Source: Alishewanella jeotgali KCTC 22429 (GTDB lineage Bacteria > Pseudomonadota > Gammaproteobacteria > Enterobacterales > Alteromonadaceae). Taken from it: a DNA stretch of 64,000 nucleotides. Position numbers and translations under genes: made by a program. How positions within the stretch are numbered: position 1 is the stretch's first letter; each line of letters opens with the position of its first letter. Positions 6,966 through 21,845 of the stretch are shown piece after piece. Under the pieces are notes generated by a model. The model saw only the letters and a program-made list of their open reading frames with translations, was not told the origin of the DNA and did no database searches. The stretch covers positions 1 to 64,000 of the forward strand of contig NZ_AHTH01000004.1 in the NCBI RefSeq assembly GCF_000245735.1, read 5' to 3'.

Positions 6966-7042
6966 CGGTACGTAGCGCAGCTTGGTAGCGCACTGTCATG
7001 GGGTGTCAGGGGTCGTGGGTTCAAATCCCGCCGTACCGACCA
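6966..7042 (+). tRNA. proL: tRNA-Pro (anticodon GGG)
   Basis: A 77-base tRNA with encoded CCA. The acceptor stem CGGTACG pairs exactly with CGTACCG, followed by discriminator A and CCA. The D arm contains GCGCAGCTTGGTAGCGC. The anticodon arm is CTGTC-ATGGGGT-GTCAG, with the same T-T opposition that I recall in E. coli proL. The T arm has the GTTCAAATC loop. The anticodon GGG reads CCC/CCU proline codons. The gene stands alone between a minus-strand gene run and the plus-strand SOD gene. Confidence 0.96.
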
Positions 7043-7421
7043 TTTAACCCTCTGCTTTAAATAGTGTTTTTCTTTCCTATCGAAATTAATCGAGTTTTTG
7101 TGTAGCAAATCCGTACCAATACACAGTATTTCAGATTAAGCGCATTCTACCGGTAGCTTTCTGGCATATAACGGCTCTGCACTGCTTCTCAATCAAGCTA
7201 GTGTAAATCGCAGTAACCAAAACCTGTCACAGAGCCGCTTTGTAACTATTTCTGGTTACCGCCAGCAACCAAGCTTTGTACGTTAATTTCCTGTATGGAT
7301 AAATCAAAACTAATCCCAATTCAGTTTATGGGCGTATTTTCATGTGAACTCAACGAGTTGAACACGGTCTGAACCGCTTTGATGGCTGCTTTGTTCGCCT
7401 TTTTTCTTTCAAGGAGTCTGT
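7043..7421 (+). other. Intergenic region between tRNA-Pro and SOD gene
   Basis: I see no gene in these 379 bases. They hold two interleaved inverted repeats: CGGCTCTG (7172-7179) with CAGAGCCG (7230-7237), and GTAACCA (7213-7219) with TGGTTAC (7253-7259). A small dyad AACTC-AAC-GAGTT lies near 7350. A good ribosome-binding site, AAGGAG, lies just before the SOD start. No copy of the tRNA 3' end was noticed that would mark an attachment site. Confidence 0.5.
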
Positions 7422-8114
7422 ATGTTGAAATCTACCCTGCTGAAATCCGTCAGCACCGCTGCCTTATTATTGGCTTCGTTATCGGCTTTTGCGGCCCCTT
7501 TTACCCTGGCCCCCTTGCCTTACGCTGCCAATGCGCTGGAGCCGGTAATTGATGCTAAGACCATGGAAATTCACCATGGCCGCCATCATCTTGCGTATGT
7601 GAATAACCTGAATGCGCAAATCGAAAATTTTCCAAAGCTGGCAGAGCTGAGCCTAGAGCGGATGATGCAGCAGATGTCGTCTTTTAATGCAGCGGTGCGT
7701 AATAATGGTGGCGGGCATTATAACCATCAGCTGTTTTGGCAGTTAATGGCGCCGGTTGGTCAGGGCGGCACACCTTCAGTTGCCTTAACTGCAGCTATTG
7801 AACGTGACTTTGGTTCATTGGATGCGATGAAAACTGCCTTTAATCAGGCGGCGGCCAGCCGCTTTGGTTCGGGTTGGGCCTGGGTAATTGTAAATAAAGA
7901 CGGTAAGTTACAGATAACGTCAACGGCTAATCAGGATAACCCGCTGATGGATGTCGTTGAGGAGCGCGGCACGCCGATTCTGGCGCTGGATGTTTGGGAA
8001 CATGCCTATTACCTGGCCTATCAGAACCGCCGTGGCGATTACAGTCAGGCCTGGTGGCAGCTGGTTAACTGGAATAAAGTGAATAAGTTGTTCGAGCAAG
8101 CCAGTACTAAGTAA
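7422..8114 (+). CDS. Exported superoxide dismutase, Mn-type signature
   Basis: Fe/Mn-family superoxide dismutase of 230 residues. A Sec signal peptide (about 1-24, ending SAFA-A) places it in the periplasm. Metal ligands are H51, H102, D190 and H194 (in IHHGRHH, YNHQLFW and DVWEHAYY). Two discriminating positions read as in E. coli MnSOD: Gly98 in the GGGHYNH segment and Gln171 in TANQDNP. I therefore predict manganese or cambialistic use rather than strict iron. It has a clear AAGGAG ribosome-binding site and is followed by a strong terminator hairpin at 8138-8171. Most bacterial MnSODs are cytosolic, so the leader is notable. Confidence 0.93.
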   Translation: MLKSTLLKSVSTAALLLASLSAFAAPFTLAPLPYAANALEPVIDAKTMEIHHGRHHLAYVNNLNAQIENFPKLAELSLERMMQQMSSFNAAVRNNGGGHYNHQLFWQLMAPVGQGGTPSVALTAAIERDFGSLDAMKTAFNQAAASRFGSGWAWVIVNKDGKLQITSTANQDNPLMDVVEERGTPILALDVWEHAYYLAYQNRRGDYSQAWWQLVNWNKVNKLFEQASTK

Positions 8115-8129
8115 CAGCCAAGCGAAGTT

Positions 8130-8237
8130 GCATTGCCAAAGGCCGCCGTGCTTTGTACACCGCGGCCTTTTCGTATCTGACTCAGAAGAGCATCTGATGG
8201 CACTTAAAGCCACTGTTTATAAAGTCCAACTGCAAAT
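8130..8237 (+). repeat. Direct repeat, copy 1 (intergenic plus yaeQ 5' end)
   Basis: This 108-base segment recurs at 10394-10500 with only a few differences: one C/T change, a small ACTCAG/ACTAA-type change with one indel, and two third-position changes in the yaeQ part. It contains the terminator hairpin after SOD, the yaeQ leader and the first 13 codons of yaeQ. Homology stops abruptly after CTGCAAAT, where the inserted segment begins. Confidence 0.93.
8138..8171 (+). terminator. Intrinsic terminator of the SOD gene
   Basis: Arms AAAGGCCGC (8138-8146) and GCGGCCTTT (8162-8170) pair perfectly. An inner GTG/CAC extends the stem past a C-C opposition, and a short T run follows. It lies 24 bases after the SOD stop. 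Confidence 0.8.
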
Positions 8238-8268
8238 AGTTAGGCTCTGCACTGCCCTTGCAGCTTAG
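8197..8268 (+). pseudogene. Truncated duplicate of the yaeQ 5' end
   Basis: ATG at 8197 opens a frame encoding MALKATVYKVQLQ, identical to the first 13 residues of intact yaeQ at 10460. It then runs into unrelated sequence and stops at 8266-8268 after 23 residues. The base differences from the intact copy are synonymous (Tyr TAT/TAC and Gln CAA/CAG; the next Ile codon is ATA versus ATT). That pattern suggests this fragment descends from a functional yaeQ allele rather than from a decayed copy. Confidence 0.85.
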
Positions 8269-8389
8269 TAAAAACCTCTGCTACAGCAGCTGCTAAGTCG
8301 GGTATCTTAAGTGCAGGTTATTAGCCCTGAGATTGCGCCGTAAAAGAAAGTAACCAAGGGGCCGGCTTACTCGGCATCAGCTACGCTAA
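8238..8389. other. Left end of the inserted segment, no gene seen
   Basis: About 150 bases between the broken yaeQ copy and the lipoprotein gene. I see no coding frame, tRNA or transposase remnant. The 13-mer GGCTCTGCACTGC at about 8243 also occurs at about 7173 upstream of the SOD gene. Confidence 0.4.
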
Positions 8390-9289
8390 TTATAATGCTA
8401 TACGACCAAGGCTAGCCCCGCCCAGTAGGCTTGCTTCACTGGTTAGCAGCAGATCACCCTGATGCCACAGAATGGCCTCCCATTGCCGCGTGGGTCGAAT
8501 ACTATGATACTGTCCCAATTCCCATTGTGGCGTATTATTAACAATAGGAAGCTGCCAAATAAAAGCAGCCACATTCAAAAACCCTAATCGATAGCCGACT
8601 AACGCCAGGCGTTCGGTGTCAGGGTCAAAATCGGCGCCAGTGATTAAACCATTTGTAAAAAACCGCTCACTACTGACCACTTCCTGAACTGCTGTGGTTT
8701 TATCTAGCCGGTATAACCGGGTATGACGATCTTGCAAGTTTTTAGTAAACAGCCACAGTTCATCACCCACCACCGTCAGCGCTTCGCAATCATCGTTATG
8801 GGCATGCGGACGGGTTGAGGGCTCGGTATCTGCCAGCCGAAACATGATTCTTTTCGCAACCACTTCGGCGCCGTCCTCAGCCTGTTCCAAATCTTGCCAG
8901 GCTACTTTATAAATTTGCATCCAGCTGCGATCACCGATATTGTTACCGCAATCAGCGATATACAACCAGTCGCTATCCTGTGCCAATGCTTCCCAATCGT
9001 AATTTGCCGCATTTTTAATATGCACCCGTCGGCTAATCGCATCGCCAGCCTCGGATAACTGATACAAGGTAGCGGCATGGCCGCTGTCGTTATGTGTCCA
9101 TAACCTACCATCACGCATTGCCAGGCCCGATGATTCATCAACCTCAGTTGGTAACGTAGCTAATAAGGTCACATTTAAAGCACTGGATTCGGCTAACGGA
9201 TAATGAGGGCTGGCAGGCGATAACGAACAACTGGTGAGTAAAAACACAGCATAGATCAAAACAAAACTAATCCGTTTACAACCAGCCAT
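8390..9289 (-). CDS. Putative beta-propeller lipoprotein
   Basis: A 299-residue protein with a lipoprotein signal peptide: hydrophobic stretch about 7-18 and lipobox LTSC (Cys about 21). It is probably anchored in the outer membrane facing the periplasm. The mature part has repeated blade-like units: GLAMRDGRLWTHNDSG, DWLYIADCGNN, DCEALTVVGDELWLFTKN, ADFDPDTERLALVGYR and AILWHQGDLLLTSE. These are typical of a six- or seven-bladed propeller distantly like SMP-30 or esterase-like phytase proteins. I do not recognise a specific family and see no catalytic set. It lies within the segment bounded by the yaeQ repeats, in the same orientation as the MNT-HEPN pair. Confidence 0.7.
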   Translation of the reverse strand: MAGCKRISFVLIYAVFLLTSCSLSPASPHYPLAESSALNVTLLATLPTEVDESSGLAMRDGRLWTHNDSGHAATLYQLSEAGDAISRRVHIKNAANYDWEALAQDSDWLYIADCGNNIGDRSWMQIYKVAWQDLEQAEDGAEVVAKRIMFRLADTEPSTRPHAHNDDCEALTVVGDELWLFTKNLQDRHTRLYRLDKTTAVQEVVSSERFFTNGLITGADFDPDTERLALVGYRLGFLNVAAFIWQLPIVNNTPQWELGQYHSIRPTRQWEAILWHQGDLLLTSEASLLGGASLGRIAL

Positions 9290-9322
9290 AATCAGCGCTT
9301 GCCTCCTTAACCAATGCGGGAA

Positions 9323-9424
9323 CTAACAAAGAAACCGAACAACGCCGAAGGTTACACCGCCAACGAAAATTACACCACCACCCAACACCACAACAAAAAA
9401 TACCACCGCTTCCGACTCCGGCAT
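9323..9424 (-). CDS. Possible 33-residue hydrophobic peptide
   Basis: A short frame from ATG 9424 to TAG 9323. Residues 1-6 are MPESEA; the rest is Val/Gly/Phe-rich and could form one membrane helix. It follows the HEPN gene on the same strand and precedes the lipoprotein gene. There is no recognisable ribosome-binding site, and the GTGGTG-like low-complexity DNA could produce such a frame by chance. Reported as tentative. Confidence 0.25.
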   Translation of the reverse strand: MPESEAVVFFVVVLGGGVIFVGGVTFGVVRFLC

Positions 9425-9485
9425 GATTACGTACCAGAGTCAGGCCTTCGATGCTGAATTTAGCTGAAATTTTATGGCTTTGCGG

Positions 9486-9980
9486 TTAAAAGGAATTACT
9501 AGGAAGCAGATTGCGTTGTTCCAGCGCCGAAATCAATTGCATCGCAAAATTTTCTAACAACGGCGTAAAGTTAGCTGCGCTATTAAGTGCATCAGCCAAT
9601 AGCTGCAAGTCTTCTATATATTCATGCACCATTTTGTTTCGCAGTTGCCGGGCCAATAACCAATTTTCAGCAGATTCTAACCAACCAAAACGCTCCGCCT
9701 TGTTTAGATTATCCAAGACCGGGCCCTTGTGCTCACCCAATGCAGCCAAGGTAGCCGGCAACAACTTATCGCCAAGGTTGTCTTGTAACCTGGCAAAACG
9801 GCTGGCAAAAGCATCAAGTTGTTCGGAAAACGCTGGATCAGTATCCAGTTGCTGCAAACGCTCGGGTGTGAGTGGCGCATTAAATAAGCGTTGCAAGGTT
9901 ACTGTGAGTTGTTTCCGCTCCTTGTCGATAACACGAATTAGAAAAGCCAGCCGCAACTGTTCATCAGATAGTGTGGTCAT
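9486..9980 (-). CDS. HEPN-domain protein, putative HepT-like RNase toxin
   Basis: A 164-residue, largely helical protein. Near residues 113-120 it has RNKMVHEY, which fits the RX4HXY signature of HEPN ribonucleases of the HepT type. It overlaps the upstream MNT nucleotidyltransferase gene by 4 bases, the usual arrangement for a two-gene toxin-antitoxin operon. In the studied Shewanella HepT-MntA pair, the nucleotidyltransferase AMPylates the Tyr of this motif and silences the toxin; here the Tyr is present, so the same control is plausible. The N-terminal half is Leu/Gln-rich. Activity is inferred from motif and context. Confidence 0.75.
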   Translation of the reverse strand: MTTLSDEQLRLAFLIRVIDKERKQLTVTLQRLFNAPLTPERLQQLDTDPAFSEQLDAFASRFARLQDNLGDKLLPATLAALGEHKGPVLDNLNKAERFGWLESAENWLLARQLRNKMVHEYIEDLQLLADALNSAANFTPLLENFAMQLISALEQRNLLPSNSF

Positions 9981-10273
9981 AGCGGTATACCCTTTGCCGC
10001 AATCTGGTGAATTGCTGAGCGTTGCAAATTTGGCGCTTGTAATAACACATCAATTTTTTGTATGCCGATACGCTGTATTATTTTAGCTTCCAGGCGGGCA
10101 GCAACTAAAGCGGGCTGACTGATTTCATTAGTGCTGCTTACCAGTAAGTCAATATCCCCGCCCCGGACGTCATCGCGTTGCCGCGAACCAAATAACGTCA
10201 CTGTCGCCTGACTGCCAAGCTCTGCAGATACCACGGCTTTAATTTGCATAATTTGTTGTTCAGTCAAACGCAT
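9977..10273 (-). CDS. MNT-type nucleotidyltransferase, putative antitoxin
   Basis: A 98-residue minimal nucleotidyltransferase. The active site reads FGSRQRDDVRGGDIDLLV: a GS motif nine residues before DID, one shorter than the GSX10DXD of many MntA proteins but of a form I recall in the RGGDIDL subgroup. A third acidic residue is likely in KIDVLL. It precedes and overlaps the HEPN gene, so it is probably the antitoxin that AMPylates the partner. Both genes lie in the segment bounded by the duplicated yaeQ 5' end. Confidence 0.78.
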   Translation of the reverse strand: MRLTEQQIMQIKAVVSAELGSQATVTLFGSRQRDDVRGGDIDLLVSSTNEISQPALVAARLEAKIIQRIGIQKIDVLLQAPNLQRSAIHQIAAKGIPL

Positions 10274-10393
10274 AGTGCCCCACTCCCAGAGGTTTTAGTA
10301 TATACCAAAGCGAAGGAGGAACAACCATTTGGGGCAGATTACATAACAACTCCCCAAAGCGCCTCAGGTTGAATGACTAAAGCACGACTGCAC

Positions 10394-10500
10394 GCATTGC
10401 CAAAGGCCGCCGTGCTTTGTACACTGCGGCCTTTTCGTATCTGACTAAAAGAGCATCTGATGGCACTTAAAGCCACTGTTTACAAAGTCCAGCTGCAAAT
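10394..10500 (+). repeat. Direct repeat, copy 2 (leader and 5' end of intact yaeQ)
   Basis: A 107-base match to 8130-8237. It starts in the yaeQ leader at GCATTGCC and ends 41 bases into yaeQ. The two copies bracket 8238-10393, which is 2156 bases carrying the lipoprotein and MNT-HEPN genes. Confidence 0.93.
10402..10435 (+). terminator. Duplicate of the SOD terminator in front of yaeQ
   Basis: Arms AAAGGCCGC (10402-10410) and GCGGCCTTT (10426-10434) with a T run. It is the same hairpin as at 8138, now 25 bases upstream of the yaeQ start. No plus-strand gene precedes it, so it is a by-product of the duplication. It would insulate yaeQ from read-through, and the yaeQ promoter must then lie within or after it. 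Confidence 0.65.
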
Positions 10501-11011
10501 TGCTGATATGGATCGGCATTATTATGCAGACCACAGCCTGACGCTGGCACAGCACCCGTCGGAAAATAACGAGCGGATGATGGTGCGCTTACTGGCTTTT
10601 GCACTGAATGCCAGTAACACCCTGCAATTTACCAAGGGGCTAAGCAGTGAAAGCGACGAGGCAGAGCTATGGGATCTGGCGCTGGATGGTACCGTTAACC
10701 TATGGGTCGAATTTGGTCAGGCCGATGAAAAATGGCTGAAAAAGGCCTGTAGCCGGGCAAAACAGGTGCACTTATATTGCTATGGTGGCCGGGTGGTACC
10801 GATTTGGTGGCAGGCGAATCAAAGTGCGCTAAGCCGCTATCAGCAACTATCAATTTGGGACATTTCGGAGCAAAGTGTGCAGCAGATGGCCACGTTGGTA
10901 CAGCGCAGTATGAACCTGCAATGTAATATCAGCGAAGGCCAAATCTGGCTATCAGATGACAGCCAGAGTGTGCTGATTGAGCCCGTGCTGTTAAAAGCCG
11001 CCAGCCGCTAA
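10460..11011 (+). CDS. yaeQ: YaeQ family protein
   Basis: A 183-residue YaeQ protein. The start MALKATVYKVQLQIADMDRHYY and the HPSENNERMMVRLLAFAL segment match E. coli YaeQ, as do the acidic LWVEFGQADEKWLKKACSRA stretch and the C-terminal IWLSDD. YaeQ proteins have a restriction-endonuclease-like fold with conserved acidic residues; their biochemical role is not settled. An AAAGAG ribosome-binding site precedes the ATG. The gene sits between two unrelated MNT-HEPN modules, and its 5' end is duplicated 2.26 kb upstream. Confidence 0.93.
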   Translation: MALKATVYKVQLQIADMDRHYYADHSLTLAQHPSENNERMMVRLLAFALNASNTLQFTKGLSSESDEAELWDLALDGTVNLWVEFGQADEKWLKKACSRAKQVHLYCYGGRVVPIWWQANQSALSRYQQLSIWDISEQSVQQMATLVQRSMNLQCNISEGQIWLSDDSQSVLIEPVLLKAASR

Positions 11012-11111
11012 GCCCGGTATTTTTCCTGAATATGCAACTGTGAGCTAACTGGCGATAACCCTGTTATTCTGATACGCTCTTGTTATATCAAAACTTATTT
11101 TATTCAGACTG

Positions 11112-11510
11112 ATGACTAACTCTGAGCCGACAATATCTCGAATTACGCAGCTCGCAAAACAAAACGCGGATATTGGGGCTATCTGGTTATATGGCTCAAG
11201 AGTACAAGGACGAGCCAGGCCAGACAGTGATTATGATCTCGCTGTTGCTTTTAATGATTTCGCACTCGATAACTTAGCGCGCTACAATCGTCCCCACTGT
11301 CTGGCACTTGATTGGGCCGCAGAGCTCGCCCTGTCTGAAGCCAAAATATCTATCGTCGATATCAACCAGGCGCCGATTTATCTGGCGTATCAGATTATTG
11401 ATACCGGACAACTGATATATAGCGATGGTAGTGCAAGAGCATGGCAAGAAATAACGCGGATTAATAGCTTATTTGAGTATCAACAAAGAGAAGCAAGTCA
11501 TGAGGTTTGA
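11112..11510 (+). CDS. MNT-type nucleotidyltransferase, putative MntA-like antitoxin
   Basis: A 132-residue protein with a canonical GSX10DXD active site (GSRVQGRARPDSDYD) and a third acidic position in KISIVDINQ. This is the MntA class, which AMPylates a tyrosine on its HEPN partner. It overlaps the downstream HEPN gene by 11 bases. The sequence differs clearly from the minus-strand MNT at 9977, so this is a separate module rather than a copy. Confidence 0.85.
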   Translation: MTNSEPTISRITQLAKQNADIGAIWLYGSRVQGRARPDSDYDLAVAFNDFALDNLARYNRPHCLALDWAAELALSEAKISIVDINQAPIYLAYQIIDTGQLIYSDGSARAWQEITRINSLFEYQQREASHEV

Positions 11511-11931
11511 AGATGCCGGCTTAAAGCTTTATTTAACTGAAGCCGCCAAACATAAACAAGACTACTGCCAACAATTAGATGAATTGCGTGCAGACTTAGC
11601 CCTGGGGGAACTACGCCGGCGTGACTACCTGGCTATAGAACGTTTATTACAACTGCTAACAGAATTGAGTATTGGCCTGGCCAAGCATTGTTTAAAAAGA
11701 TATCAGCAACACAGCTCTGTCGACGCCTATCAAACTTTCTCACAGCTACATCAGCACGGCATGATTACGGCTGACGAGTTGTCAGAATGGCGCCAGATTA
11801 TTGGTATGCGAAACGGGTTAGTACACGATTACTTAAATATTGATGTCAACATTGTGCGTTTGATTGTGGCGCAAGGGCGTTATCACACCCTTGCAGACTT
11901 TTGTGACAAAGCAATCCTATTTTTACGATAA
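11500..11931 (+). CDS. HepT-like HEPN RNase toxin
   Basis: A 143-residue helical protein of the HepT (DUF86-like) family. RNGLVHDY near residue 112 is the RX4HXY catalytic and AMPylation motif, preceded by the typical WRQIIGM helix. I chose ATG 11500 because AAAGAGAAG lies just upstream; a TTG start at 11473 would add nine residues. The start lies inside the 3' end of the MNT gene, which favours coupled synthesis with antitoxin first. Likely an RNase whose activity is blocked by the upstream MNT; target unknown. Confidence 0.85.
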   Translation: MRFEDAGLKLYLTEAAKHKQDYCQQLDELRADLALGELRRRDYLAIERLLQLLTELSIGLAKHCLKRYQQHSSVDAYQTFSQLHQHGMITADELSEWRQIIGMRNGLVHDYLNIDVNIVRLIVAQGRYHTLADFCDKAILFLR

Positions 11932-11973
11932 TGCTATTGTTAACGTATACACCGAATATCGTTATCTTCTGAC

Positions 11974-12549
11974 TCAGGCCAGCCGCGGATCAGAGACTGC
12001 GGCGCCGGCCTTTTGCTGATTGGCAGCATGAAACGCTAGTAAGGCCGGATAATCTTCCAGATCCAACAATTCGCGGAATATCACCCAGTCCAGTAAGCAA
12101 TACAGTGCCATCGCCGGATACTGCCAGTTGGCAAATTCCTGATTAGCGGCCTGCTGCTCCAGCACAAACATTGAGGCGGCAATCCGCTCTTTTTGCGCAT
12201 TAAAGAACAGCCGATCTTCATTGGTATTCAGGCCGCTGCGGGTACATAAAAATAGCGAGACCAGCGAATCATTGACTGCATTAATCAACGTGAGTTGATT
12301 TTCCTGATACCAACTTAATGCTGCCAGGCCCATTTTCGCCGCCAGATAGCGGTAGATCACATTAGAATCGAAGATAATCTCGTCGTTATCCTGCAACATC
12401 GGGATTTTTAACGTTGGGTTCAGCGCTAATAACTTCTGCCGATCCGCCTCGGCAAAAATATTCATATTGATAAACTGATGTGGTGTTTCAGCCAGCAGCA
12501 GCCGGATCCGTCTTACATAGGGTGAAGTCTGTGAACCGTATAGTTGCAT
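11974..12549 (-). CDS. Glutathione S-transferase-like protein
   Basis: A 191-residue GST. The N-terminal thioredoxin-fold half (about 1-75) starts MQLYGSQTSPYVRR, with the cis-Pro region KIPML and a DSNVIYRYL segment that would contact the glutathione glutamyl group. The C-terminal half is helical. The active-site region SQTSPYV has Ser/Thr rather than Cys and resembles E. coli YibF-type GSTs. The physiological substrate cannot be read. It is convergent with the HepT gene and marks the right edge of the variable locus. Confidence 0.82.
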   Translation of the reverse strand: MQLYGSQTSPYVRRIRLLLAETPHQFINMNIFAEADRQKLLALNPTLKIPMLQDNDEIIFDSNVIYRYLAAKMGLAALSWYQENQLTLINAVNDSLVSLFLCTRSGLNTNEDRLFFNAQKERIAASMFVLEQQAANQEFANWQYPAMALYCLLDWVIFRELLDLEDYPALLAFHAANQQKAGAAVSDPRLA

Positions 12550-18015: not shown

Positions 18016-19485
18016 CTAGTTTTGAATAATCACAGCTTTATTCCACAGATTCTGGTTTTTCTGATTAATAAAATAGTCATCCGGATGCCAGCAACGTGGT
18101 AATAGTGGCGAAGCCATCCGCTCTTCAAAGTTGTAGACCAGGCGGCGTAAAATCTCGAGCAAGCGTTCTTCAGGAACTACCTCGAGCTTTTTTCGCCCTT
18201 GCGGGAAATACAAATTGTTTTCCGCGCTGACAATACAGCCACGAGCGGAAGCCTGGTAAGTTAGGCTATAGGTTACCATTCGACAAATTGGCTTGCGAAA
18301 ATCCGGTGGATACAAACCGGTGACAATCGCATATTCATATCGCTCCATATCGTTGCCATCTGAGTCTTTAGGAATATAGGTCACGCCATAACCTTGCGGG
18401 AACAAGCCAACGATCCTCAAAAAAGCGGCTACTGCATTTTTGCTTAACTTACCAAGTTCGGCTGTCTTTTCCAAAGCTAATGCAGCCTTGGGTAGATCTT
18501 CATAGTTATAGCTACTACGGGTTGATAACACCATACCGGTATAGATTTGGGGAATGCGCAGAATACTCCCCAATACCTCCTGAGGACGCACCGCCTGTTT
18601 TATTAATAGCTGGATTAACTCTCGCTTTTCAATTTCAAATTGAACAAACCTATCACGCTCTTGCTTGTTACGGCCAGTGTATCGTCCTACCGTAAGCGCA
18701 TCTTGCAGAAAATTTAATGTTTCCGTGTAACTTGTCTGCAAGAACAGATTACGCTCTTCCGCTTCCAATTCGCGGAATTCATCGTAGGTGCCATCAGCCC
18801 CCCGCAGAATATTTTGACAAACAGGATGGCAGCGACCGATATCCTGTAACAGTGCCGCCATCAAAACCGGAACATGCACATCATCACGATAAGGGTGATA
18901 ATCTGTTTCGTCGGTATATGGCAGCGACTTACCCTCTTCGTAACGCTCCAGAATAAACGGATGATCGATCAGCCCATCCATAACCATGCGATCTAATAAC
19001 CTGATGCTCAACACGGCTTTATAAAGATGTCTCGCTTTCTGATTTTCTTTGGCAATATTTCTGCCTCTGGTTGGGCAAATCAGTTGAATAGTACCCAATA
19101 GCTTGGCGCTCAGGTTGTTCGTATCGGCAAAACTGTCCGCCTGACATAGCGAAAGAATATCCCGACACAGTGCGTGTAAATCACTATATCGTTGAAATTT
19201 TGCTTCTTCGATTTCGTTGCTGAAATTTTTATGCTGGTCTTCAGCTTGTTTCAGATTTTTGGCAATCGCGGCTTGATCGCCTTTCTTAGACTGCTGTTGC
19301 CGGTTTTCAAATAGAAATAACTGTTGCTCAAGCTCCGTTGCTTTCTGATCGCGTTGCTCTTTCTCGGCAAACCATTTAATGGCTTGTTCATAAAACGAGT
19401 CCTGCAACGGACTTTGATGATATACCCGCTCAATTAAACGCTGAACAATTTTGGCGTACGCCGCCTTTCCAAAACTCAATGACAT
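18016..19485 (-). CDS. Unrecognised protein with degenerate HD-like segment
   Basis: A 489-residue cytosolic protein. Residues about 40-95 are a Gln/Lys/Glu-rich coiled coil. Near 227-245, VHVPVLMAALLQDIGRCH resembles the helix carrying the HD dyad of HD or HD-GYP phosphohydrolases, but the expected His is Gln (LLQDIG). A late beta-rich part, GLFPQGYGVTYIPKD with RYEYAIVTGLYPPDF, recalls the C-terminal segment after HD-GYP domains. I therefore suspect a catalytically altered HD-GYP relative, possibly a binding protein, but cannot confirm it. It is convergent with the MFS gene (8-base gap). Confidence 0.6.
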   Translation of the reverse strand: MSLSFGKAAYAKIVQRLIERVYHQSPLQDSFYEQAIKWFAEKEQRDQKATELEQQLFLFENRQQQSKKGDQAAIAKNLKQAEDQHKNFSNEIEEAKFQRYSDLHALCRDILSLCQADSFADTNNLSAKLLGTIQLICPTRGRNIAKENQKARHLYKAVLSIRLLDRMVMDGLIDHPFILERYEEGKSLPYTDETDYHPYRDDVHVPVLMAALLQDIGRCHPVCQNILRGADGTYDEFRELEAEERNLFLQTSYTETLNFLQDALTVGRYTGRNKQERDRFVQFEIEKRELIQLLIKQAVRPQEVLGSILRIPQIYTGMVLSTRSSYNYEDLPKAALALEKTAELGKLSKNAVAAFLRIVGLFPQGYGVTYIPKDSDGNDMERYEYAIVTGLYPPDFRKPICRMVTYSLTYQASARGCIVSAENNLYFPQGRKKLEVVPEERLLEILRRLVYNFEERMASPLLPRCWHPDDYFINQKNQNLWNKAVIIQN

Positions 19486-19517
19486 CCGGATGCTGTTCCT
19501 GGGATCAATAATATTAA

Positions 19518-20522
19518 CTAATCAAAGCTCACGATTAACTTGCCAATAGTCTGATTGCTGGCGAGTAATTGGTGCGCTTGCTCTATATCTACGGTGCTAA
19601 ATACCCGATCGATTAGCGGCTTAATGTCGCCAGCGGCCAAATCGGCCGCAAAGTCTGCCCCAAATTGCTGTGTTAACTCTGCTTTGTATGCGCTATTGCG
19701 ATTTCGTAACGTTGAGCACAAAAGTTGACCGCGCTTTCTAAACAACACACTCAGGTCAAACTCAGGAATTTTTCGCCCTGCCATCATCGCATAAATAATA
19801 ATTTTACCATCTTGCGCCAACAAACTCGCTTCCGCATTGAGATAGGCTCCAGCAACGGGATCAAGGATCAAATCTATGCCGGACGGCCAGTGTTGGGACA
19901 ACAGCTGTTTAAAATCCTGTTCTCGGTAATTTATCGCGATGTCAGCCCCCAATTGCTTACATACCGCGGCTTTGTTCGAGTTGCCCACCGTGACGGCTAT
20001 GTGTAACCCCATTGCCTTCGCTAACTGAATCGCTGCCGTACCTACCCCACTCGCACCAGCGTGAATAAGCACTCGCTGGCCTTGCTGCGCCTGGCCTAAA
20101 AAAACCAAAAGCTGATACGCAGTTAAAAAGGTTTCTGCTGTGGCAGCGGCTTGTTGCCATGTCCAACCAGGTGGAACAATCATTGCCTGGCTTGCAGGCA
20201 TTGCAGCGTATTCAGCGTAACCACCACCGTTTACCAAACCAAATACACTTCGACCTATCCAGGGGGACAAAGACTGGTCTGCCACTGCAACAACAGTACC
20301 GGCAACTTCTAATCCCAAAATTTCGCTGTCACCGGCGGGCGCCGGATATAACCCCTGTCGCTGCATCAAATCGGCACGATTAATACCAAAAGCGGCAACT
20401 TTTATCAGTAACTCACCAGATTGAAGCTCTGGCAGTGCCACATTTTGCCAGCTAAGCTGGCTTTCCGCTCCGGGTGATTGCACTACTACAGCCCGCATAA
20501 CTCTGGGCAAGGTTTCAAGCAT
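19518..20522 (-). CDS. NAD(P)H:quinone oxidoreductase, zinc-independent MDR family
   Basis: A 334-residue medium-chain dehydrogenase/reductase of the quinone oxidoreductase (PIG3-like) class. The N-terminal GroES-like part has AAFGINRADLMQRQGLYP and EILGLEVAGTVV. The cofactor fold has RVLIHAGASGVGTAAIQLAKAMG; the catalytic-zinc cysteines of alcohol dehydrogenases are absent. Start ATG 20522 is chosen because AAGGA lies 7 bases upstream; the frame extends further but would run toward the rlmI promoter. Divergent from rlmI. It likely reduces quinones with NADPH; the natural substrate is unknown. Confidence 0.9.
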   Translation of the reverse strand: MLETLPRVMRAVVVQSPGAESQLSWQNVALPELQSGELLIKVAAFGINRADLMQRQGLYPAPAGDSEILGLEVAGTVVAVADQSLSPWIGRSVFGLVNGGGYAEYAAMPASQAMIVPPGWTWQQAAATAETFLTAYQLLVFLGQAQQGQRVLIHAGASGVGTAAIQLAKAMGLHIAVTVGNSNKAAVCKQLGADIAINYREQDFKQLLSQHWPSGIDLILDPVAGAYLNAEASLLAQDGKIIIYAMMAGRKIPEFDLSVLFRKRGQLLCSTLRNRNSAYKAELTQQFGADFAADLAAGDIKPLIDRVFSTVDIEQAHQLLASNQTIGKLIVSFD

Positions 20523-20642
20523 AGGTGTCCTTAAACTGGTGACGAACGTTAACAGATGGGCTCTATAAACCGATTTTCCTTTAGCTTTACCAGTCACTTC
20601 TCTAAAATGCAGCCTTTAGTCTAGCATAGCGACCTACCAGAT

Positions 20643-21845
20643 ATGAATAATAGCAGCGTACCGGCGGTGATCCTGGCCGAGGGCCGTGAAAAAGCCCTGA
20701 ATCGGAAACACCCGTGGATTTTCTCTAACGCCATTGCCAAAGTCCATAATACGCCAAATCGTGGCGACACCGTTGCTGTCGTCAGTAGCAAAGGCGAATG
20801 GCTGGCCTGGGCAGCCTACTCACCTGCATCGCAAATTCGTGCCCGGATCTGGAGCTTTCAACAACACGAACAGATTGATCAGGCGTTTTTTAAGCAACGT
20901 CTTCAGCGCGCCTGGCAACTGCGGCTTAGCTTGTTCAACACAGAGCAGACTAATGGGCTACGGGTAGTGGCTGCGGAGTCAGATGGTCTGCCAGGTATTA
21001 CTATTGATAAATATCAGGACGTATTGGTAGTGCAGCTACTCTCTGCCGGTGCCGATGCCAAACGCAAACAATTGGTCGCTGCGCTGCTTGAGGTATTCCC
21101 GGAGCACAGTATTTACGAGCGCTCCGATGTGGATGTGCGCAAAAAAGAAGGCCTGCCGCTGGTAACCGGCTGGCTGCATTTACCGCGTGGCAGTGGTGAG
21201 GTGCTGATTAAAGAGCACGGTATGACGCTGGTCGTCGATGTGGTTAACGGCCATAAAACCGGCTTTTATCTGGATCAGCGGGTAAACCGCGCCGCATTGC
21301 GCCGTTTTGCAAAAGACGCAGAAATATTAAATTGCTTTAGCTATACCGGCACCTTTGGCGTTGCAGCCTTAATGGGCGGTGCCAAACAGGTGACTAATGT
21401 CGATCTGTCTGAGCTGGCACTACAAACCGCGGCGCGTAATGCCGAACTTAATCAGTTAGATCTAAGTAAACTGAGCAATCAAAAAGCCGATGTGTTTAAA
21501 CTGCTACGACAGTATCAGGAGCAAGGCAAAACCTTTGATATCGTGGTACTGGACCCGCCGAAGTTCGCGGACAACAAAGCCCAGCTTAACAGTGCCTGTC
21601 GAGGCTACAAGGATATTAACCGGGTGGCGATGCAACTGGTAAAGCCAGGTGGTCTGCTGTTTACCTTTTCCTGCTCAGGCTTAATGGAAGAGAGCTTGTT
21701 CCAGAAGGTGGTCGCCGATGCGGCACTGGATGCGAAACGAGATTGCGTGTTTATCGAACGCTTACAACAAGACAGTGATCATCCGGTCGCCAGTTTCTAC
21801 CCTGAAGGCTATTATCTGAAAGGGTTGATCTGCAAAATCTATTAA
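20643..21845 (+). CDS. rlmI: 23S rRNA (cytosine-C5)-methyltransferase RlmI
   Basis: SAM-dependent methyltransferase that in E. coli modifies C1962 of 23S rRNA. 400 residues, close to the 396 of E. coli. An N-terminal PUA domain (about 1-75, [10 protein letters not shown]) is followed by a linker domain. The Rossmann domain has [18 protein letters not shown] (motif I), [11 protein letters not shown] (motif IV) and TFSCSG with the catalytic Cys. A 10-bp hairpin at 21852-21884 follows the stop and separates it from the convergent PilZ gene. Confidence 0.94.

What the first reader, a model, noticed from the sequence alone, without database searches (positions are those of the whole stretch)
8130..10500. 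2.2-kb insert bounded by a direct repeat that duplicates the 5' end of yaeQ
The sequence at 8130-8237 (SOD terminator, yaeQ leader, first 13 yaeQ codons) recurs almost exactly at 10394-10500. Between them lie a lipoprotein gene and an MNT-HEPN pair. The ancestral order was probably SOD-yaeQ. Differences within the coding part are all synonymous (Tyr, Gln and the next Ile codon). This fits an incoming element that carried a yaeQ 5' end from another functional allele and rebuilt the gene, as integrating elements do at gene ends. No integrase or transposase is visible, so the mechanism is open: integration helped in trans, or homologous exchange.
Basis: partly seen in the sequence, partly recalled or inferred. 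Interest (0 to 1): 0.7.

Follow-up and report, generated by a model that had tools for sequence, protein, structure and literature searches.

The report
Truncated gene relic beside imported toxin-antitoxin genes
A short broken copy of the start of a housekeeping gene marks where a stretch carrying toxin-antitoxin genes was spliced into a bacterial chromosome, most likely by ordinary but sloppy DNA recombination rather than by a mobile element with its own integration enzyme.

Summary
The repeat is real: 8130-8237 recurs at 10394-10500 with four substitutions and a 1-base indel. The same joint occurs in Alishewanella agri, so it is no assembly artefact. The ancestral order SOD-yaeQ-GST is confirmed: SOD stands directly before yaeQ in 10 of 31 genus genomes. 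A. aestuarii has this unit without the left copy and without SOD; its similarity to the window starts at 8238, where the left copy ends. The left copy is best read as the stump of another chromosome's yaeQ, left by recombination homologous on the right and illegitimate on the left. Window and A. agri later exchanged the joint by homologous recombination (block 99.4% identical; highest of 212 other windows 97.2%). Scans found no recombinase between the repeats; searches found no plasmid or phage carrier. Polarity and route are inferred. Known kind of event; modest interest.

The parts
7422..8114 (+). Fe/Mn superoxide dismutase gene, resident left neighbour
   Evidence: Pfam Sod_Fe_N/Sod_Fe_C; directly before yaeQ in 10 of 31 genus genomes; no close ortholog in G003 (best 54%)
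8130..8237 (+). Left copy: SOD terminator, yaeQ leader and first 13 codons of yaeQ; stump of a broken yaeQ (24-codon ORF)
   Evidence: hairpin z = -3.5
8238..8251 (.). Joint. Similarity to the A. aestuarii cargo starts here (9 of 14 bases, near-identity from 8251)
8390..9289 (-). Putative lipoprotein gene, no family match
   Evidence: found in 3 of 31 genus genomes
9486..9980 (-). HEPN1, HEPN-like putative RNase toxin (RNKMVHEY = RX4HXY)
   Evidence: no Pfam match; weak NCBIfam HI0074 match, E 0.019, below cut-off; MNT1-like match beside it at all 13 other-locus places examined
9977..10273 (-). MNT1, nucleotidyltransferase-fold putative antitoxin (GSX9DXD)
   Evidence: Pfam NTP_transf_2 E 9e-6; MntA model below cut-off
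10394..10500 (+). Right copy, joined to the intact yaeQ
10460..11011 (+). Intact yaeQ
   Evidence: Pfam YaeQ E 6e-74; groups with A. tabrizica, A. longhuensis and G019
11112..11510 (+). MNT2, MntA-family antitoxin (GSX10DXD)
   Evidence: NCBIfam MntA_antitoxin, 79 bits, cut-off 60
11503..11931 (+). HEPN2, HepT-family RNase toxin (RNGLVHDY = RX4HXY)
   Evidence: NCBIfam HepT_toxin, 87 bits, cut-off 60; Pfam HepT-like
8238..11975 (.). Block exchanged between the window's lineage and A. agri
   Evidence: 99.4% identity against 92.9-95.8% in SOD, GST and DCD; inside it 10274-10500 is only 96.5%

Best explanation
The left copy is the stump of a SOD-yaeQ chromosome's yaeQ. That chromosome recombined with DNA of the type now seen in A. 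aestuarii (lipoprotein-HEPN1-MNT1-yaeQ-MNT2-HEPN2-GST). The right side joined by homology; the left side joined illegitimately, fusing yaeQ codon 13 to the intergenic DNA beyond the lipoprotein gene (homology-facilitated illegitimate recombination, HFIR). yaeQ function was not lost, because the other parent brought a whole yaeQ. The finished joint was then passed between the window's lineage and A. agri by ordinary homologous recombination, and the two 107-base copies may since have exchanged short tracts by gene conversion. Shown: the joint, the alternative left neighbours, the ancestral order, the near-identical block, the mosaic identity. Inferred: which parent was recipient, the one-ended mechanism itself, and uptake by transformation or another route.
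For: Ancestral order: SOD directly before yaeQ in 10 of 31 genus genomes. In A. aestuarii (G003) the cargo and right copy are present, but the left neighbour is a pectate lyase gene and neither left copy nor this SOD exists; that left segment has only short or diverged patches in the other five genomes tried. Window/G003 similarity begins at 8238, the first base after the left copy. The right side is colinear in all three genomes through GST, DCD and the start of metG. Window and A. agri share the joint; the block is 99.4% identical while SOD is 93.9% and GST 92.9%, and none of 212 overlapping windows of that size elsewhere in the 64 kb exceeds 97.2%. Mosaic identity across the 64 kb suggests frequent homologous recombination. 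yaeQ is native to the clade. No recombinase family was found in the ORFs scanned between the repeats; no carrier was found in the plasmid, phage and viral-contig searches made. A ComEC-type competence domain and dprA are present in all three genomes, although E. coli has both too.
Against: No clear microhomology at the exact joint (a shared AAATTG lies a few bases off), and five of the bases 8243-8250 differ from A. aestuarii, so the joint is not a clean two-parent fusion. No close relative with an empty SOD-yaeQ site was found: among Alishewanella the nearest are A. tabrizica and A. longhuensis (YaeQ 75-79% identical). Polarity cannot be fixed. The left limit of the window/A. agri exchange falls at or near the joint and the right limit at the GST stop codon, which could also suggest a discrete unit. 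The block is not uniform: 10274-10500 has 8 differences in 227 bases. The conversion reading is weak: the T that both A. agri copies share at 10489 is also in A. longhuensis, so it may be ancestral. Competence was not shown.
Confidence: 0.6

Rival explanations
1. A fragment carrying lipoprotein-HEPN1-MNT1 plus the yaeQ 5' end circularised by end joining and entered by one homologous crossover in the 107-base segment, giving cargo between two copies. No site-specific enzyme is needed.
For: Gives the same SOD-copy-cargo-copy-yaeQ topology. In the E. coli study PMC3240628 (passages) most of the 60 Lac-minus clones analysed showed partial gene duplication, put down to a single crossover.
Against: Requires a recipient that already had SOD-yaeQ-MNT2-HEPN2, seen in none of 31 genus genomes. 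The block shared with A. agri runs well past the right copy.
Confidence: 0.15
2. Integrating element that targets the 5' end of yaeQ and rebuilds it, with a recombinase acting in trans.
For: A repeat at a gene 5' end with an intact rebuilt gene; identical left joint in two species with diverged left flanks; sharp block edges.
Against: No recombinase in the ORFs scanned; repeat found in only 1 of 30 relatives; cargo present without the left repeat in A. aestuarii; different material without repeats in G019; the shared unit does not end at the right repeat; no carriers found.
Confidence: 0.1
3. One insertion with a 107-base target duplication in the common ancestor (staggered break filled with foreign DNA); A. 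aestuarii later lost SOD and the left copy.
For: The topology is that of a target duplication; copy divergence in the window (4 of 107 plus an indel) is close to the divergence between the species.
Against: The later replacement in A. aestuarii would have to end within about 14 bases of the copy/cargo joint by chance. No known transposon makes duplications this long (recalled).
Confidence: 0.15

Closest known systems
Homology-facilitated illegitimate recombination (S. pneumoniae, A. baylyi, P. stutzeri, E. coli; PMC3240628, passages read)
   Same: One homologous end, one illegitimate end, no integrase; about 1 kb inserts coupled to deletions of resident DNA
   Different: Seen here only as a relic; the usual 3-10 bp microhomology is not clear at the joint; the broken resident gene was replaced by a whole allele
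Displacement of T6SS effector genes in Vibrio cholerae leaving orphan immunity genes (PMC5361080, passages read)
   Same: Imported toxin-type module anchored by homology on one side, resident gene remnants left; the authors propose an HFIR-like mechanism
   Different: Here the stump is a housekeeping gene 5' end and the cargo is MNT-HEPN pairs
Integrating elements that rebuild a gene 5' end, such as SXT/R391 at prfC (recalled, no call)
   Same: Gene start duplicated with an intact gene at one end
   Different: No recombinase found, no recurrence, cargo present without the repeat
HepT/MntA type VII toxin-antitoxin of Shewanella oneidensis (PMC7641770, passages read)
   Same: MNT2/HEPN2 carry GSX10DXD and RX4HXY and pass the curated cut-offs
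   Different: MNT1/HEPN1 are below the cut-offs and MNT1 has GSX9DXD

Membership tests
HFIR product | One end joined by extended homology | tested here: met
   Right side colinear and homologous through yaeQ, MNT2-HEPN2, GST, DCD and metG in all three genomes
HFIR product | Other end joined without extended homology | tested here: met
   Window and A. aestuarii show no aligned similarity between 7053 (tRNA-Pro side) and 8237
HFIR product | Microhomology of 3-10 bp at the joint | tested here: inconclusive
   None at the exact joint; AAATTG shared a few bases off. In PMC3240628, 3 of 4 E. coli HFIR clones also had none (passage)
HFIR product | RecA dependence, uptake of linear DNA | not testable with these tools
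   ComEC-type domain and dprA present, which does not show competence
Integrating element rebuilding a gene end | Own or linked recombinase | tested here: not met
   No recombinase family in the ORFs scanned between the repeats or in the second pair; ORFs under 60 aa were not scanned
Integrating element rebuilding a gene end | Recurrent occupancy with the same repeated ends | tested here: not met
   yaeQ 5' duplicate in 1 of 30 relatives
Integrating element rebuilding a gene end | Excised circle or empty site in a sister strain | not tested
   No strain-level genomes were held
Type VII HepT/MntA pair (11112-11931) | MntA and HepT models above cut-off, GSX10DXD and RX4HXY motifs | tested here: met
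   motif definitions in PMC7641770
Type VII HepT/MntA pair (9486-10273) | MntA and HepT models above cut-off, GSX10DXD and RX4HXY motifs | tested here: inconclusive
   RX4HXY present, but MntA model below cut-off, HepT model not matched, and GSX9DXD

The most novel reading that the evidence does not exclude
yaeQ between two MNT-HEPN pairs acts as a recombinase-free travelling unit: the host gene gives the homology that lets it enter relatives, and the flanking toxin-antitoxin pairs penalise cells that lose or replace the allele, so the unit spreads by homologous recombination alone.
Probability: 0.08. Interest if true: 0.6.

Novelty: new member of a known kind. Interest (0 to 1): 0.3.

Why it matters
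If right, it is a clear natural example of how small toxin-antitoxin loci enter and spread among species without an integration enzyme, leaving a short gene stump as the only scar. It also warns that direct repeats at gene ends are not by themselves evidence of an integrating element.

Tried and rejected
Searches for carriers: HEPN1 protein in plasmids and viral contigs (8 pattern matches, none a relative), the DNA of 8130-12000 in plasmids (near mode) and phages (distant mode): no match. The other cargo proteins were not searched in those collections. PADLOC gave only weak matches, the best being MNT2 to PDC-S09 at E 6.8e-8. PHROGs gave none for 7 ORFs. Solved-structure searches with HEPN1 (best E 0.14) and MNT1 gave nothing useful.

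A 13-base match (GGCTCTGCACTGC) between the joint (8243) and the SOD upstream region (7173) was considered as templated filler. It occurs a third time elsewhere in the own genome and is not kept at the SOD position in A. agri, so it stays only a possibility.

An integron attC reading of GTTAGGC at the joint was considered by eye only and set aside, since no integrase was found; no attC search was made. Assembly artefact was rejected (same joint in an independent assembly). A repeat flanking the downstream MNT2-HEPN2 pair was looked for and not found (best 9 bases).

Papers: PMC3240628, PMC5361080 and PMC7641770 were seen as passages. In the listings for the HFIR term (10 of 49 papers listed), yaeQ with genomic island (1 of 1) and Alishewanella with horizontal gene transfer (10 of 14), titles and abstract starts showed nothing on this locus. 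That is not proof that nothing is in print.

Full report
Observation. The repeat is present as described: 8130-8237 and 10394-10500. A search of the 3.83-Mb own genome with 8110-8330 finds these two places and no other at E <= 0.001. After leaving out one extra base at 8183 the copies differ at 4 of 107 positions. The shared segment holds the SOD terminator hairpin (z -3.5 and -3.8), the yaeQ leader and 13 codons. The third (ATA against ATT) is the joint itself, since the A at 8238 begins the sequence alignable with A. aestuarii.

Host. Among 30 relatives of its genus, contig lengths and places identify G005 as Alishewanella agri BL06, G003 as A. aestuarii B11, G011 as A. tabrizica, G023 as A. 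longhuensis and G019 as Rheinheimera sp. UJ63. The window is probably Alishewanella (inference).

Ancestral order. Counting the own genome, 31 genus genomes were compared. In 10 (G001, G004, G006, G008, G010, G011, G022, G023, G026, G028) the SOD gene stands directly before yaeQ, with 73-106 bases between the aligned ends. In 2 (the window and G005) the insert lies between. In 1 (G019) SOD lies 9.4 kb before yaeQ, with other genes between, among them two transposase-type genes. G003 has no close ortholog of this SOD (best 54%). The other 17 have none near yaeQ. The wider interval from tRNA-Pro to yaeQ is variable across the genus: 1.0 to 15.7 kb in the 25 of 30 relatives where the tRNA lay inside the fetched stretch.

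Cargo. The lipoprotein gene occurs in 3 of 31 genus genomes: the window, G003 and G005. In a draw of 295 genomes of the order, 42 had a match (own included); the best outside the genus by E-value was 43% identical. HEPN1 had 16 matches in 13 of 31 genus genomes, 3 at this locus; an MNT1-like match lay beside all 13 others (L059-L071; eight of them only 32-40% identical or broken in HEPN1), so the two genes tend to travel together. A second pair, MNT2-HEPN2 (11112-11931), stands directly after yaeQ in the same three genomes and beside yaeQ in none of the other 28. It passes the NCBIfam MntA and HepT cut-offs. The cargo genes have 44-48% G+C, against 51% for the window.

The key comparison. In A. 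aestuarii the cargo, the right copy, yaeQ, MNT2-HEPN2 and GST are colinear with the window. The left copy is missing and the left neighbours are a pectate lyase gene, an unassigned gene (its ending looks like PEP-CTERM by eye), a SatD-like gene (below Pfam's cut-off) and a DUF3307 gene, then tRNA-Pro. Similarity with the window begins at 8238, exactly after the left copy: 9 of 14 bases match up to 8251 (a level reached by 0.2% of 14-base stretches of that locus), with near-identity from 8251 on. So two different left sides are joined to the same right side at one point, which is what a one-ended illegitimate event leaves behind. If instead a target duplication had been ancestral, A. aestuarii would later have had to break at that same point by chance.

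Spread. Window and A. agri share the joint. Between them 8238-11975 is 99.4% identical, while SOD is 93.9%, GST 92.9% and DCD 95.8%. Of 212 overlapping windows of the same size elsewhere in the 64 kb, none exceeds 97.2%, although single kilobases left of SOD (4-7 kb) reach 98.1-98.7%. The block is not uniform: 10274-10500 has 8 differences in 227 bases. It includes yaeQ and the second toxin-antitoxin pair, so the unit exchanged is not the 2264 bases between the repeats. Inside it, 9330-10162 holds 0 of 833 A. aestuarii-specific differences, against 106 of 2883 in the rest; the stretch was picked after seeing the data, but the gap of 834 bases exceeds the longest of 2000 shuffles (437). The HEPN1-MNT1 pair was probably exchanged once more among all three. 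Overall identity is a mosaic (G003 71.6-100%, G005 70.2-99.4% per kilobase), so homologous recombination looks frequent here.

The copies. Only 1 of 30 relatives (A. agri) has a yaeQ 5' duplicate. Upstream of yaeQ, 1.7 kb was examined in G016, about 4-7 kb in eight others and 14-25 kb in the remaining 21. In 14 of the others there were only short hits (15-38 bases, E 0.001-0.04), several of them a yaeQ 3' hairpin matching itself; I did not count these. In A. agri both copies carry T at 10489 where the window's two copies and A. aestuarii have C, and its left copy otherwise equals the window's right copy. This may be gene conversion between copies, but A. longhuensis also has T there, so the T may be ancestral. 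Either way it blurs where the left edge of the exchanged block lies.

Mechanism. The best reading is homology-facilitated illegitimate recombination, confidence 0.6, with the joint then carried between species by homologous recombination. A ComEC-type competence domain and dprA are present in all three genomes, but E. coli also has both, so competence is not shown. Against this reading: no microhomology at the exact joint, five altered bases within 8243-8250, undetermined polarity, and exchange limits close to the joint and to the GST stop codon. The paper on E. coli HFIR (PMC3240628, passages) also reports single-crossover products with partial gene duplication, kept here as a rival at 0.15.

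Verdict. yaeQ groups within the Alishewanella part of the tree, so nothing indicates a distant donor for the gene itself.

Noticed in passing
window 27000-57000: Identity with A. agri falls to 70-86% per kilobase, while A. aestuarii stays at 93-100%; one of the lineages has probably replaced this stretch, which includes NAD-glutamate dehydrogenase.
   Followed up: partly
window 18016-21000: A stretch with an unassigned 489-aa gene and a zinc-type alcohol dehydrogenase is only 71-77% identical to both A. agri and A. aestuarii, between better conserved flanks.
   Followed up: partly
window 6966-10460: The tRNA-Pro(GGG)-yaeQ interval is variable across the genus (1.0-15.7 kb in 25 of 30 relatives), so this is a flexible region even without yaeQ duplication.
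   Followed up: partly
window 9330-10162: The HEPN1-MNT1 stretch shows no A. aestuarii-specific difference in 833 bases, probably a separate recent exchange of the toxin-antitoxin pair.
   Followed up: yes
window 7173-7185 and 8243-8255: A 13-base match between the SOD upstream region and the joint, possibly templated filler DNA.
   Followed up: partly
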